NCBI RefSeq assembly: GCF_003994255.1
Contig: NZ_ML133853.1
Coordinates: forward strand, 229,951-293,950
Direction of reading: 5' to 3'
DNA: 64,000 bases
From: Brachybacterium paraconglomeratum
GTDB taxonomy: Bacteria > Actinomycetota > Actinomycetes > Actinomycetales > Dermabacteraceae
Under the pieces are notes generated by a model. That model had not been told where the DNA came from. It ran no database searches and saw only the letters and a list, made by a program, of their open reading frames with translations. Position numbers and translations under genes: made by a program. This document shows positions 59,715 to 64,000 of this stretch, piece after piece (the first letter of the stretch is position 1; each line of letters opens with the position of its first letter).

Positions 59715-61022
59715 GTGACGACCACGCGACAGAGCCGCGCCGAGAAGGTCGACGCCGCGACTCCTGCTTCCCGGAACCGGGTCGTCGACTTCCTGCGCGC
59801 CGCCGCGATCACGGTGGTGGTGCTCGGGCACTGGACGATCATCGCCGTCGACCCCGACGGTGGGATCCTCCCGCACGGCGCGCTCGACGGCGCGCGGTGG
59901 ACCCATCCGCTGACCTGGGTGTTCCAGGTGATGCCGATCTTCTTCCTCGTCGGCGGGTACTCCAACGGACTCTCCTGGCGCTCCGCGAGGCGCAAGGAGA
60001 TCGGCTACGCCGAATGGCTGCGCACCAGACTCCGACGCCTCGGCATCCCGCTGATCCCGCTGCTGCTCACCTGGCTCGTGATCGGGGTGGTCGCTGTCGC
60101 GCTCGGCGCCCCGCATGCGACGGTGCAGCTCGTCTCCCAGATGGCGCTGATCCCCACCTGGTTCCTCGCCGCGTACCTGATGGTGATCCTGGTGGCCCCG
60201 CCGTGCCTGGTGCTGTGGGAGTGGTTCGGGTGGTGGTCGATCGTGGGCGGCATCGCGCTCGCCGGAGCGGTGGACGCGGTGAGCCTCGTCGCCGACCAGC
60301 CGCTGCTCGGCTACCCGAACTACCTGCTGGTGTGGGCGGCGTTCCATCAGGTCGGGTACGCGTGGCTGGACGGTCGACTGGCTGGGAGCGGCAGGCGTCT
60401 TTTGCTCGCCGCGATCGGGCTGGTGGGCCTGCTGCTGCTGGTGCTTGTGGGTCCGTATCCGGTCTCGATGATCACCTCGGCTGCCGACGAGATCTCCAAC
60501 TCGAGCCCCACCCGAGTGACGATGGCGTTCCTGGGCATGATGCAGGCCGGGCTGGTGCTGCTGCTCGAGAAGCCACTGACCGCACTGCTGCGCCGGCCCC
60601 GGCTGTGGCTCGTCACAGTGCTGGTGAACCAGCGGATCATGACCTGGTTCCTGTGGCACCTCACCGTGATGGTGGGCCTCGCCCATCTGCTGCTGGCCCT
60701 CGACGCACGGGCGCTGCTGCCCGAGCCGCTGACGGGCCTGTGGTGGGCGACGCGGCCGCTGTGGGTGCTCGCGCTGCTCGCGCTCACGGGGCTGGTGGTG
60801 CTGGTGATGGGAAGGTTCGAGTCCCCGCGGGCCGACGAGCGACCGGCCCCGCCGGTGTGGAAGCCGATCCTCGCCGCCGTTACCGTGATCGCCGGCCTCG
60901 CGGTGATGGCGAACGTGGGCGTGGTGGGGGAAAGCGGCGTGACATGGTGGTGGCCGCTGCTGCCGGTGGTGGGAATGGTGGGCTCCGAAGTCCTGTGTGC
61001 ACGCTGGGAACGGACGGACTGA
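59715..61022 (+). CDS. acyltransferase family membrane protein (Acyl_transf_3)
   Basis: 435-residue polytopic protein, about ten transmembrane segments. RVVDFLRAAAITVVVLGHW supplies the N-terminal Arg and the catalytic His of the family, and FFLVGGYSNGLSW is the next hallmark. MIPTWFLAAYL-like sequence and FLWHLTVM lie further on. These enzymes O-acylate surface glycans, lipids or antibiotics. The GTG start follows AAGGGGAGGGG. It is the last gene before base composition drops. Confidence 0.9.
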   Translation: MTTTRQSRAEKVDAATPASRNRVVDFLRAAAITVVVLGHWTIIAVDPDGGILPHGALDGARWTHPLTWVFQVMPIFFLVGGYSNGLSWRSARRKEIGYAEWLRTRLRRLGIPLIPLLLTWLVIGVVAVALGAPHATVQLVSQMALIPTWFLAAYLMVILVAPPCLVLWEWFGWWSIVGGIALAGAVDAVSLVADQPLLGYPNYLLVWAAFHQVGYAWLDGRLAGSGRRLLLAAIGLVGLLLLVLVGPYPVSMITSAADEISNSSPTRVTMAFLGMMQAGLVLLLEKPLTALLRRPRLWLVTVLVNQRIMTWFLWHLTVMVGLAHLLLALDARALLPEPLTGLWWATRPLWVLALLALTGLVVLVMGRFESPRADERPAPPVWKPILAAVTVIAGLAVMANVGVVGESGVTWWWPLLPVVGMVGSEVLCARWERTD

Positions 61023-61151: not shown

Positions 61152-62234
61152 TTACATTCTCTGATGCAAGGCCAGTTTCGGGTGCAACGCGCGAAGGGCC
61201 TCGGTCAGGTTATTGTAACGATATGTGGCGATCTTCCCGGACTCGAGGTCAATAACCACCTCAAAAAAATCGTCTTCACTTACCCAGTCTGAGGTTCTTG
61301 ATTGGACAAGGCCCGCCCGACTGTCGTCTCGGAACGTAATGCTTCGAACCTTGAGATCATTAACCATAGAGCGGTGGGTCTCGAGCTCCGAAAAAAGGTC
61401 CTCCGGGCCCATATGGGCACTGTCAAGAATAAACCTCAACATCGAGTGCCCCTCGAGGTCCTCGATCTCCCTTCCTTCGAAGTAGACAAATATTCCTCCG
61501 TCCAGATTGTTGACGAGGGCGGTCCAGCCGTTCCCAAGATCGACTTCTTCCTCGGAGCCGGATTTCGAGTTCATTGCAGGAAGTTGATCAAGCTCAGCGA
61601 GGCGTTGGGCAGCGCGAGTCTGCCCAGCAGCCGCAGCTTCCACGTAATATTCTCTAGCCGTGCGCAATTCCCCCTTTGTCTGAAATAGGTCTCCAAGGAG
61701 GTACTGGATGTCGAGGTCATCGTCCTCGACTGCCGACGTGAGAAGGAACTGGGCACGATCAAATCGGCCAGCCTGCTTCTCGTAAAGCGCAAGCTTCATG
61801 GAGCTTTGCATATTGAAATATTTGACGCCGTTTGCGAAATGGATCTCGGCTTCCTTGTTGCGACCGAGATGCTCACTGACTTCGCCTAGGCAATAGCAGA
61901 ATATTCCACAAATGTCTTCGAGTCGACTGGTCCTGGAGTCTTCCACGGGAGCGATCCCGACCGCTTGCGCATTCTCCTCATCGAGAAGTTGGAGCTCCGA
62001 TTCGGTCAACGCGTAGGCGAAGTGGCGGCGCACCGCTCCGAGTTTAGGTCCAGGGCCTTGCGAAAGGATGCCTGCGATCCGCATGTGACCTAAGAAATGA
62101 TTCGAATCGAGCGACGCTCGAAGCTCACGTAGCTCCCCCTCGGGATCGGAGCTGGGAGCAAAGATCCTCGCTTCCAGGCTGCTCATAGTCGAGAACTGCA
62201 TAGACCGCGGCGTCTCGCCGACAAAACTCACCAC
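61152..62234 (-). CDS. uncharacterised TPR/Sel1-like repeat protein in low-GC island
   Basis: 360 residues, function not recognised. The middle (about 95-215) is helical with tetratricopeptide-like units: LGRNKEAEIHFANGVKYF, ALYEKQAGRFDRAQFLLTSA, LLGDLFQTKGELRTAREYYV, then AAAAGQTRAAQRLAELD. The C-terminal third (about 225-350) is a separate mixed fold with WTALVNNLDGGIFVYFEG and FFEVVIDLESGKIATYRYNN. The GTG start follows GAGGAG. Its GC content is clearly below that of the rest of the window and codons ending in A or T are common, suggesting transfer. It lies downstream of a C5 methyltransferase and may belong to a defence locus. Confidence 0.8.
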   Translation of the reverse strand: MVSFVGETPRSMQFSTMSSLEARIFAPSSDPEGELRELRASLDSNHFLGHMRIAGILSQGPGPKLGAVRRHFAYALTESELQLLDEENAQAVGIAPVEDSRTSRLEDICGIFCYCLGEVSEHLGRNKEAEIHFANGVKYFNMQSSMKLALYEKQAGRFDRAQFLLTSAVEDDDLDIQYLLGDLFQTKGELRTAREYYVEAAAAGQTRAAQRLAELDQLPAMNSKSGSEEEVDLGNGWTALVNNLDGGIFVYFEGREIEDLEGHSMLRFILDSAHMGPEDLFSELETHRSMVNDLKVRSITFRDDSRAGLVQSRTSDWVSEDDFFEVVIDLESGKIATYRYNNLTEALRALHPKLALHQRM

Positions 62235-62340
62235 GTATCAGCTCCTCAGGTCGTCGTTCAGGACTCGCGTCTCTTCGGACTCTATCGGAGGTGGCCGATG
62301 AGAGTGGAAGCTTCGAAGTAATTTGGCGACGGGAGGAAGG

Positions 62341-63474
62341 TCATCGGTCATCACCGATGGTGCTGCCGCTCAGCGCGTCCAGCAGGTGCTCCCCGATCGC
62401 TTTCCCCAACGGAATCGGTACCGCATTGCCGATCTGCTTCACGATCTGGGTGATCGGGCCAACGAAGAGGTAGTCGTCGCGAAAGCCCTGGATGCGTGCA
62501 CCTTCGTGGGGCGAGATCGCGCGGTGGTGTACCGGGTGGAGATAGCGGCCCTTCTCGGGCTTGGTGAACTCGGTCCGAATCGTCACCGAGGGCTCTTCCC
62601 AGCGGAGTCGTCCCATGACGTCTCCACTCCCGGACGTGTGCTTCTTCCACGCCGCGCATTTGAGGTCTTCATCCAGGTCGAATCGACTCCCGCCGTACGG
62701 GATCTTCCGGAACCGACGCTTCGAGAGGTCGGAGTATTTCCGAGCGACGTGCAGTTCGTCCGAACGGAAGGGGCCAGGGTTCGACGTGCCGTCGTGGAGC
62801 GCGTGCACCCGCCCAGCGGGCAGTTCGCCGGGGAGGGGGAGCCCGCCGATGACCTCGCGTAACTTCGGCCACGCCGACTTTTCCGCCTGCCCTGTGGGGA
62901 AGCCCGGATCTGGGACGTCTCGCCGGTGTCCGACGACGATCACGCGTTTCCGGATCTGCGCGGTGCCGTACGCGGCGGCGTTCACCAGATGCGGGGTGAT
63001 CGCGTAGTCCTCGAGGACCCCGCCTGGTGCGGTCATCTCTCGGAACATGTCGAACTGAGCCGAGGAGAAGAATTGGGGGACGTTCTCCAAGACGAAGTAC
63101 TTCGGGACGGCTCGCACCACAGCCTCGGCGTAGTGGCGCCACAAGAGGTTCCGCTCGTCGTCGACCCGTCGTGCCCCTAGTGCCGAGAAGCCCTGGCACG
63201 GCGGCCCACCGATGACCATGTCGACCTCAGGAGTCTGCTCGGTCGCCAGCCAGTCCTGGATGCTTCCTACGAACACGTCGGTGTCGTGGTTCAGGGCGTA
63301 CCCCGCAGCGGCCCGTGGCTCCATCTCGACCGCGCGAACCGCACGGTACCGAGAATCAGCCTGGCTGAAGCCTTCCGAGAGGCCGCCGACCCCAGCGAAG
63401 AGATCGAGCATCCGGATGGCACTGGAGGAAGAATCTCCGGCTGCTGGCGGGAGAGACGCAGATGCGATGGTCAC
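62341..63474 (-). CDS. DNA (cytosine-5-)-methyltransferase
   Basis: 377-residue m5C DNA methyltransferase. Motif I is MLDLFAGVGGLSEGF, motif IV GGPPCQGFSALG with the nucleophile Cys, motif VI VLENVPQF, motif VIII AQIRKRVIVVG, and the late motifs are PSVTIRTEF, SPHEGARIQGFRDDYLF and QIGNAVPIPLG. The target-recognition region lies at about residues 180-280. All catalytic residues are present. The start is GTG at 63474. GC is somewhat below the window average. No restriction endonuclease is seen in the window; the neighbouring gene cut by the right edge is the place to look. Confidence 0.95.
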   Translation of the reverse strand: MTIASASLPPAAGDSSSSAIRMLDLFAGVGGLSEGFSQADSRYRAVRAVEMEPRAAAGYALNHDTDVFVGSIQDWLATEQTPEVDMVIGGPPCQGFSALGARRVDDERNLLWRHYAEAVVRAVPKYFVLENVPQFFSSAQFDMFREMTAPGGVLEDYAITPHLVNAAAYGTAQIRKRVIVVGHRRDVPDPGFPTGQAEKSAWPKLREVIGGLPLPGELPAGRVHALHDGTSNPGPFRSDELHVARKYSDLSKRRFRKIPYGGSRFDLDEDLKCAAWKKHTSGSGDVMGRLRWEEPSVTIRTEFTKPEKGRYLHPVHHRAISPHEGARIQGFRDDYLFVGPITQIVKQIGNAVPIPLGKAIGEHLLDALSGSTIGDDR

Positions 63475-63646
63475 GACATCGGAGCATAGCCGGCGGAGTA
63501 CGCGTTCCGTGGGACGAGAGGGCTGTAACGAGCGACGTCACAATCTGTAGGAACCGTCCCGCGTCGGAGTTGGCGCGGAAGCTCGAGCGGTCGGCCGTTC
63601 GAGCGCTCCGATTCCTCGTGCCCGTACGCCACGGATACCGAGCGCT

Positions 63647-64000
63647 TCATGCCAGCTCTCGAATGATTGTGTCCGCTGCATCTTGCGGGTCCATTTCGCA
63701 AGAGACGACCGTCCAACCGTCGTCTTCGAGGGAGACGTCCCTCTCGTCGTTGGCACTTCCGACGACTGTCACCAGAACCGACTCCCACGTCATGTCGACG
63801 CCGTAGCGATCAGTCCCGATCTCCGCGCCGAACGTCGGCAACGGGATCTCATTCTCGACGAGGATCCTGATCAGTCCTCGATGCTCAGGGAACTCGTCCC
63901 AGAACTCTCCCCATCCAGCTGCGAAAACCTCTGCCGGAGCTTCCGTAGAAGAGTGTGGTTCCGCAGCCGTCTGGCTCTTGGGGGAGGTCGCGATCCCTCG
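63647..64000 (-). CDS. 3' end of a gene running off the window, possible defence-helicase C-terminus
   Basis: 117 codons plus stop are visible; the 5' end lies beyond the right edge. The part from WGEFWDEFPEHRGLIRILV through LPTFGAEIGTDRYGVDMTW to SLEDDGWTVV resembles the C-terminal extension I associate with DEAD/DUF1998-type helicases in anti-phage loci, where a short nuclease-like module carries W(P/E)..VxV and GW-x-V. This is recalled resemblance only. The gene ends 172 nt before the methyltransferase start, same strand, so they may form one operon. Confidence 0.6.
   Translation of the reverse strand, partial: RGIATSPKSQTAAEPHSSTEAPAEVFAAGWGEFWDEFPEHRGLIRILVENEIPLPTFGAEIGTDRYGVDMTWESVLVTVVGSANDERDVSLEDDGWTVVSCEMDPQDAADTIIRELA

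What the first reader, a model, noticed from the sequence alone, without database searches (positions are those of the whole stretch)
61152..64000. Low-GC right end: C5 methyltransferase, TPR protein and truncated neighbour as a defence-island edge
Composition drops sharply after 61022. An intact m5C methyltransferase has no endonuclease beside it, is followed by an unknown TPR-like protein, and is preceded by the tail of a gene that recalls defence helicases. A DISARM-like or other multi-gene anti-phage system with a C5 methylase is possible, and the TPR protein could be an unrecognised component.
Basis: partly seen in the sequence, partly recalled or inferred. Interest (0 to 1): 0.6.

Follow-up and report, generated by a model that had tools for sequence, protein, structure and literature searches.

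The report
DISARM-like operon with sacsin-type helicase
The end of the window is the edge of a bacterial anti-phage island that carries a widespread, apparently undescribed relative of the DISARM defence system, in which a large ATPase-helicase and a second helicase replace the usual partners, usually near a DNA cytosine methylase.

Summary
GC falls from 0.72 to 0.54-0.63 after about 61,000. A TPR-like gene and an intact C5 methylase are followed by the tail of a gene cut by the window end. That gene is DrmB of DISARM. Upstream in the same operon lie DrmA, a UvrD-like helicase and a 1,637-aa protein ('HATPhel': sacsin-type GHKL ATPase, uncharacterised middle, SF2 helicase). The order HATPhel-UvrD-DrmA-DrmB is complete in 78 of 80 related loci. 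DrmA+DrmB adjoin HATPhel in 15 of 15 further places from a class sample (3 of the 15 recur from the 80). A catalytic C5 methylase lies in 69 of 80 cassette loci but 2 of 16 other DrmA loci. No DrmC was found. A complete ARMADA type II-like operon diverges from it; ARMADA adjoins the cassette in at least 5 of 17 genomes. In one congener HATPhel plus a 65%-identical methylase carries another back end (HATPase, DUF4420 nuclease family, Z1). Verdict: a distinct DISARM-family variant, perhaps a methylation-linked hub with swappable effectors. The mechanism is inferred; no phage test was run.

The parts
61152..62234 (-). TPR-like orphan protein, 360 aa, at the island edge; judged not to belong to the system
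   Evidence: matches below cut-off; 0 of 80 loci
62341..63474 (-). C5 cytosine DNA methyltransferase, 377 aa, intact
   Evidence: catalytic C5 MTase in 69 of 80 cassette loci
63647..64000 (-). C-terminal end of DrmB (whole gene 63647-65809, 720 aa, in window coordinates continued past 64000). The rest of the operon lies beyond the window, same strand: DrmA 65811-69149, UvrD-like helicase 69040-70878, HATPhel 70875-75788; then Vsr 75607-76341 (+), EVE-fold protein 76362-76907 (-), and the separate ARMADA type II-like operon 77038-94062 (+)

Best explanation
The finding is the downstream end of a DISARM-family anti-phage operon of a distinct class: HATPhel - UvrD - DrmA - DrmB, here with a C5 methylase downstream and Vsr and EVE genes upstream. 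Likely working, inferred: the C5 methylase marks host DNA, and Vsr repairs the T:G mismatches that methylation causes. HATPhel, a GHKL ATPase fused to an SF2 motor, acts as an ATP-gated clamp that tells marked host DNA from unmarked or structurally abnormal invading DNA. It then loads UvrD and the DrmA/DrmB helicase, which translocate on and unwind phage DNA and so block circularisation or replication. No cassette gene carries a recognised nuclease, so cutting, if any, would come from accessory or host enzymes. Shown here: gene identities, order, linkage and conserved catalytic motifs. Inferred: anti-phage activity, every step of the mechanism, and the methylase's role as the self mark. I put about 0.75 on the identity and about 0.3 on this order of events.
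For: DrmA and DrmB pass NCBI's curated cut-offs and align with the solved DISARM pair. The four-gene order is complete on one strand in 78 of 80 loci; DrmA+DrmB adjoin HATPhel in 15 of 15 further places of a class sample, UvrD in 14 of 15. Called genes overlap or lie within 20 bp at 67/67, 66/67 and 75/75 measured junctions. ATPase residues of HATPhel (82 sequences) and UvrD (69) are invariant. Cassette DrmAs are split from 16 others by a branch with support 100. Catalytic C5 MTase in 69 of 80 cassette loci against 2 of 16 other DrmA loci. The site is a defence hotspot. DrmAB of a class 1 system is activated by 5' overhangs and restrained by methylation (PMC9142583, discussion).
Against: No phage test exists. 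The methylase's place varies (median 2.3 kb from the cassette; only 23 of 69 within 500 bp) and 11 of 80 loci lack one by my motif test. Lack of DrmC is not special: 11 of 16 other DrmA loci showed none either. Extra HATPhel copies without DrmAB behind them occur (L108, L110), and in G303 HATPhel stands with no DrmAB at all. The fold search with the middle of HATPhel was inconclusive. In our locus the methylase is downstream and the Vsr gene upstream of the cassette, so they may not be one unit.
Confidence: 0.7

Rival explanations
1. It is an ordinary DISARM system that has merely lost DrmC and lies by chance beside unrelated helicase and methylase genes.
For: DrmA and DrmB pass the DISARM cut-offs; DrmC is reported as dispensable and often missing (PMC9142583); 11 of 16 other DrmA loci here also show no DrmC.
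Against: HATPhel and UvrD precede DrmA in 78 of 80 loci with overlapping or near-touching genes and their ATPase residues are invariant; cassette DrmAs form one side of a well-supported branch. DrmD, DrmMI and DrmE were not recognised in the operon (partly capped lists).
Confidence: 0.15
2. HATPhel plus the C5 methylase is the real system (a restriction-modification type), and UvrD-DrmA-DrmB is only its commonest add-on.
For: G303: HATPhel and a methylase 65% identical to ours, with HATPase_c_3, DUF4420 and Z1 instead of UvrD-DrmAB. Plasmid p2MP: methylase, a 1,096-aa HATPhel relative without the SF2 helicase, and the same three partners.
Against: Only two such cases were seen; 78 of 80 loci and all 15 class-sample places have DrmA and DrmB. 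In 11 of 80 loci no catalytic methylase was found nearby.
Confidence: 0.25
3. The TPR protein is an unrecognised component of the methylase system.
For: It follows the methylase on the same strand after about 106 bp.
Against: 0 of 80 cassette loci; only weak partial matches in 6 other phylum genomes of 296 and none in 46 other family genomes; GC 0.545 against 0.65 for the MTase.
Confidence: 0.03

Closest known systems
DISARM class 1 (Serratia sp., PDB 7s9v/7s9w; PMC9142583)
   Same: DrmA and DrmB as separate adjacent genes, alignable over DrmA residues 128-1299 and DrmB residues 12-616 of the solved pair; methylase linkage
   Different: No DrmC, DrmD or DrmMI recognised in the operon; HATPhel and UvrD precede DrmA; our DrmA has nothing aligned to the first 127 residues of 7s9v_A; DrmB has an extra C-terminal stretch
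DISARM class 2 (drmE, drmMII; contents recalled, partly restated in PMC9142583)
   Same: C5 methylase beside DrmA/DrmB
   Different: The methylase scores higher on DruM and MTase_II models than on DrmMII; no DrmE among the matches shown
ARMADA type II (PMC12458937)
   Same: Its four-gene set lies next door, divergently; a UvrD/GajB-like helicase occurs in both systems
   Different: A separate operon; its YprA-like helicase is one large protein matching DruE models, not a DrmA/DrmB pair
Tiamat (TmtA, PADLOC)
   Same: HATPhel's N-terminal part matches TmtA models (residues 58-465, 8e-52)
   Different: The match covers about a quarter of the TmtA profile; HATPhel ends in an SF2 helicase and lies in a DrmAB operon
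MORC/paraMORC restriction-modification operons (PMC2292703)
   Same: GHKL ATPase with SF2 helicase, cytosine methylase and Vsr; G303 and p2MP resemble the third operon type described there
   Different: Our locus has a sacsin-type GHKL fused to the helicase, plus DrmAB and UvrD, and no Z1 or DUF4420 was seen among its scanned proteins

Membership tests
DISARM (any class) | DrmA, a YprA-like SF2 helicase | tested here: met
   NCBIfam DISARM_DrmAS 980.5 bits, cut-off 950; PADLOC DrmA 4.8e-232; 7s9v_A 4.4e-161
DISARM (any class) | DrmB (DUF1998/MZB) as a separate adjacent gene | tested here: met
   NCBIfam DrmB_fam 441.6, cut-off 240; Pfam MZB 1.9e-8; starts one base after the DrmA stop
DISARM (any class) | DrmC, a PLD-type protein (core gene as recalled; reported dispensable and often missing in PMC9142583) | tested here: not met
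   0 of 80 cassette loci and not in L002; 5 of 16 other DrmA loci have it
DISARM (any class) | A DNA methyltransferase in the locus | tested here: met
   C5 MTase 62341-63474; 69 of 80 related loci
DISARM class 1 | DrmD and DrmMI in the operon | tested here: not met
   No such gene between HATPhel and the MTase; the DrmD/DrmMI-like genes next door belong to the divergent ARMADA-like operon
DISARM class 2 | DrmE and an orthologous DrmMII | tested here: inconclusive
   No DrmE among matches shown, but lists for HATPhel and UvrD were capped at 25 of 33 and 25 of 41; DrmMII 5e-46 against DruM 1.4e-87
ARMADA type II (right neighbour) | BrxHII/DrmD-like, PglX-like, YprA-like and GajB-like genes in that order | tested here: met
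   PADLOC matches: DrmD/BrxHII (first 337 aa tested), REase_MTase_IIG/DrmMI, DruE, C3a187/GajB; order
ARMADA type II (right neighbour) | RelE-like domain at the N-terminus of ArmD | tested here: inconclusive
   The first 255 aa of ArmD gave no Pfam match
ARMADA type II (right neighbour) | Vsr-type nuclease at the C-terminus of ArmC; place in the YprA tree | not tested
   No call
Tiamat | Full-length TmtA | tested here: not met
   Best match covers profile positions 10-415 of 1538
MORC/Z1 restriction-modification operon | Z1 helicase and RE-fold (DUF4420-type) protein beside GHKL and methylase | tested here: not met
   Neither among the island proteins scanned (chosen ORFs, not every one); both present in G303 and p2MP

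The most novel reading that the evidence does not exclude
HATPhel is a methylation-linked hub: one sacsin-type GHKL/SF2 protein that, with a C5 methylase and an EVE reader, plugs into different effector back ends, either UvrD-DrmA-DrmB or HATPase-DUF4420-Z1, and recurrently partners with ARMADA. DISARM-like and MORC-like systems would then be two outputs of one sensing platform.
Probability: 0.33. Interest if true: 0.78.

Novelty: new variant of a known kind. Interest (0 to 1): 0.64.

Why it matters
Annotation models see only parts of this locus (DrmA, DrmB, a methylase, a Tiamat-like ATPase, GajB-like helicases) and could split or mislabel it. A four-gene operon this tightly conserved, mostly in actinobacteria and without a recognised nuclease, makes an open question testable: how DrmAB restricts phage without DrmC. 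The swap seen in G303 and the repeated pairing with ARMADA offer natural comparisons of which genes sense and which do the damage.

Tried and rejected
Rejected: the TPR gene as a component. A chance neighbourhood. DrmC-lessness as a special trait of this class: 11 of 16 other DrmA loci also showed none. Spread by phage: no full-length HATPhel in viral contigs (2 helicase-only matches); of 6 plasmid records with a match, 1 carries the long N-terminal part and 5 the helicase part only. No tRNA was found in the window, in L002-L004 or in six relatives' stretches L192-L197.

Led nowhere: the fold search with HATPhel residues 395-1215 (model pLDDT 87) gave no PDB match at E<=0.001 and best Z 3.6; inconclusive, as an 821-residue piece can hide single domains. 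The DrmB extension against three Vsr sequences by profile comparison gave probability 51 only, and Pfam found nothing above its cut-offs; its alignment has no invariant acidic or lysine residue, so an active nuclease there is unlikely but not excluded. A literature search for a third DISARM class returned one unrelated paper.

Rows dropped and limits: L065 was left out of the DrmA tree because it is the same contig as L148; one shorter DrmA call (under 900 aa) was left out too. HATPhel calls of 1,400 aa or less and UvrD calls of 500 aa or less were left out of the motif counts. Exceptions to the 78 of 80: L108 (a HATPhel with DrmA and DrmB only on the other strand) and L128 (contig ends after UvrD); L110 has a complete cassette and a further HATPhel behind it. 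The 80 loci are the best of 437 relatives; the other 357 were not seen. The 16 'other DrmA' loci come from a sample of 296 genomes, 27 of them with DrmA; 23 had no cassette, and 16 of these were fetched. L227 gave no UvrD match, only a DEAQD motif. The C5 MTase and Vsr counts rest on my own ORF calls and motif or cluster rules.
Full report
WHAT IS IN THE WINDOW. The three genes reported are real. GC per kb is 0.721 (sd 0.021) up to 61,000, then 0.541, 0.629 and 0.633. Positions above 64,000 below are window coordinates continued.

THE CUT GENE AND ITS OPERON. The gene cut at 64,000 is DrmB (63647-65809). Upstream on the same strand lie DrmA (65811-69149), a UvrD/GajB-like helicase (69040-70878) and a 1,637-aa protein that I call HATPhel (70875-75788). 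DrmA scores 980.5 bits against NCBI's DISARM_DrmAS model (cut-off 950) and DrmB 441.6 against DrmB_fam (cut-off 240). Both align to the solved DISARM pair: DrmA to residues 128-1299 of 7s9v_A, DrmB to residues 12-616 of 7s9v_B. HATPhel has a sacsin-type GHKL ATPase near its N-terminus (NCBIfam P_loop_sacsin 73.3 bits, cut-off 50) and an SF2 helicase at its C-terminus, most like RadD but far below that model's cut-off. Its middle, residues 395-1215, gave a confident model (pLDDT 87) without a PDB match at E<=0.001; that is inconclusive. The HATPhel stop overlaps the UvrD start by four bases, and DrmB starts one base after the DrmA stop.

THE CASSETTE IS CONSERVED. A scan of 84,980 species genomes with four aligned HATPhels gave 437 relatives, of which the best 80 loci are kept. 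In 78 of 80 the order HATPhel-UvrD-DrmA-DrmB is complete on one strand. They are mostly Actinomycetota; L131 is an Acidobacterium and L139 a Dehalococcoidia bacterium. Called genes overlap or lie within 20 bp at 67 of 67, 66 of 67 and 75 of 75 measured junctions; my ORF caller takes the first start, so overlaps are exaggerated. Because that scan was anchored on HATPhel and ranked by likeness, I also used a sample of 394 genomes of the class: 17 have a full-length HATPhel, and an 18th, G128, only the helicase part. The remaining places are the own locus, G182 (cassette complete) and G278 (UvrD-DrmA-DrmB about 27 kb from HATPhel, with ARMADA between). In a tree of 97 DrmAs, 81 cassette rows and 16 others are split by a branch with support 100 (quick method, midpoint root, several long branches among the others).

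CATALYTIC RESIDUES. Over 82 HATPhels the GHKL E, N and D, the glycines of the G2 motif, the SF2 Walker lysine, the DEAH box and the motif VI arginines are invariant. Over 69 UvrDs the Walker lysine, the DE of motif II and the motif VI arginines are invariant. This suggests that all three ATPase sites are in use.

METHYLASE, VSR, EVE. A gene with both GxPCQ and Q[IV]GNA motifs lies in 69 of 80 cassette loci against 2 of 16 other DrmA loci (Fisher p 1.7e-8, without correction for relatedness). Its place varies: median 2.3 kb from the cassette, 23 of 69 within 500 bp. Vsr-cluster genes occur in 28 of 80; ours is at 75607-76341. Next to it, 76362-76907 encodes a protein whose model (pLDDT 72) matches EVE/YTH folds, among the best human THYN1 bound to 5-methylcytosine DNA and the restriction endonuclease VcaM4I. 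Eight Micrococcaceae homologues carry in addition a C-terminal domain with D and ExK residues; Pfam finds NOV_C in the one tested; ours lacks that domain.

NO NUCLEASE RECOGNISED IN THE CORE. DrmC was sought with tblastn and with a profile built from DrmCs of this phylum: 0 of 80 cassette loci and none in L002, but 5 of 16 other DrmA loci. Absence is therefore common, not special. DrmC is reported to be non-essential and often missing (PMC9142583, introduction and discussion). DrmB of our locus and of 13 relatives, out of 79 aligned, has a C-terminal extension of about 100-125 residues, which resembles Vsr only weakly and shows no invariant acidic or lysine residue.

THE TPR GENE. It has no match of 40 bits or more in 80 loci. 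Among 296 phylum genomes 6 others gave weak partial matches, 5 of them to the repeat region, and among 47 family genomes only the own one matched. It is an orphan at the island edge, GC 0.545. I drop it from the interpretation.

THE ISLAND AND ITS SITE. Eight congeners were compared. Synteny with all eight stops near 60,982. It resumes at about 98,130 in G297, G308 and G332, about 98,430 in G298 and about 98,760 in G322; those five have 3.8-6.8 kb of other DNA in between. In G316 and G304 it resumes some 3 kb further in, and in G302 not within the 20 kb fetched. The DNA at the site includes a Drt9-type reverse transcriptase and an HNH gene (G332), type IV-like enzymes (G298, G316), and a C5 methylase with a gene matching REase_II models (G322). 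The site is a defence hotspot.

ARMADA NEXT DOOR. The divergent operon 77038-94062 encodes ArmA-, ArmB-, ArmC- and ArmD-like proteins in the order of ARMADA type II (PMC12458937: abstract, text parts 1-3 of 8, passages and figure legends). A complete ArmA-D set adjoins the cassette in 5 of 17 genomes with full-length HATPhel: own, G278, G596, G427 and G605. Orientation differs: divergent here, co-directional and downstream of DrmB in G427 and G605, convergent in G596, between DrmB and HATPhel in G278. The other 12 genomes were seen only in 20-kb stretches, so 5 is a lower bound. The cited preprint reports synergy between ARMADA and Druantia III; whether the present pair cooperates is untested.

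THE SWAP. In congener G303, whose right flank is collinear with ours (the left flank was not established), HATPhel is followed by a C5 methylase (65% identical to ours), a relative of the EVE/NOV_C protein, a HATPase_c_3 protein, DUF4420 (a putative PD-(D/E)XK family) and Z1; no UvrD, DrmA or DrmB match above 50 bits lies in the 33 kb fetched. Plasmid p2MP of Arthrobacter sp. 68b has a methylase, a 1,096-aa HATPhel relative without the SF2 helicase, HATPase_c_3, DUF4420 and Z1. GHKL-helicase-methylase-Vsr operons of that sort were described in 2008 (PMC2292703, passages). Many cassette loci, mostly of Streptomyces, also have a GHKL-like gene (cluster in 39 of 80; GHKL read by eye from its consensus, Pfam saw only its HTH), a DUF6339-type gene (31 of 80) or Z1 (10 of 80) beside the cassette. 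HATPhel may thus be a shared front end with two back ends; two clear cases do not prove it.

MECHANISM. Most likely: the methylase marks self; HATPhel clamps DNA in an ATP-dependent way and senses unmarked or abnormal DNA; UvrD and DrmAB are loaded and unwind invading DNA, blocking circularisation or replication; cutting, if any, is done by accessory or host nucleases. The DrmAB part rests on published work on a relative (5'-overhang activation, restraint by methylation, PMC9142583). The HATPhel part is inference from its domains and from the analogy with MutL and UvrD drawn in PMC2292703. Nothing here was tested against phage.

KNOWN OR NOT. I searched a library of openly licensed papers. Only PMC12458937 came near; its figure legend says that the DISARM-like clade contains many uncharacterised classes, so this class may already lie in that tree. 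Its supplementary files and the rest of its text were not seen. The paper that defined the DISARM classes (Ofir et al. 2018) was not read; class contents are recalled apart from what PMC9142583 restates. PMC8011034, PMC10482375 and PMC13118837 were seen as passages only; those passages do not describe the cassette. PMC10482375 calls Tiamat enriched in Actinobacteria; since HATPhel matches TmtA models near its N-terminus, some such calls could be HATPhel. That is a guess.

VERDICT. A new variant of a known kind: DISARM-family DrmAB with a new pair of partners. It is not filed as class 1 or class 2. Interest 0.64, for its breadth, its tightness and the possible hub role, held down by the lack of any functional test.

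Noticed in passing
window coordinates 77038-94062, beyond the window (L002:18989 onward, L003): A complete ARMADA type II-like operon next to the cassette; complete ARMADA sets also adjoin it in G278, G596, G427 and G605, in different orientations.
   Followed up: partly
L210:4556-17858 (G303, same genus): HATPhel, C5 methylase (65% identical to ours), EVE/NOV_C-like, HATPase_c_3, DUF4420 and Z1 in one run, without DrmAB, with a right flank collinear with that of our island.
   Followed up: partly
L202:7182-17386 (Arthrobacter sp. 68b plasmid p2MP): The same kind of run on a mobilizable plasmid, with a HATPhel relative that lacks its SF2 helicase.
   Followed up: partly
Streptomyces loci such as L106, L112, L130, upstream of HATPhel: A recurrent block with Z1, Vsr, two tandem C5-MTase-like genes (one without the PCQ motif), DUF6339, an unknown 331-aa protein and an HTH-GHKL-like protein, in varying completeness, beside the cassette.
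   Followed up: partly
L087:21768-22763 and 7 homologues: EVE-like domain joined to a domain with D and ExK residues (NOV_C in the one tested): a candidate modification-dependent endonuclease next to the cassette in Micrococcaceae.
   Followed up: no
L194:11362-12897 (G332); L196:2202-5423 (G298); L193:3396-6539 (G316): The same chromosomal site holds other defence genes in congeners: a Drt9-type reverse transcriptase and type IV-like restriction enzymes.
   Followed up: partly
L004:18392-19078 (-): Transposase-like ORF near the contig's right end, recognised by eye; no family search was run.
   Followed up: no
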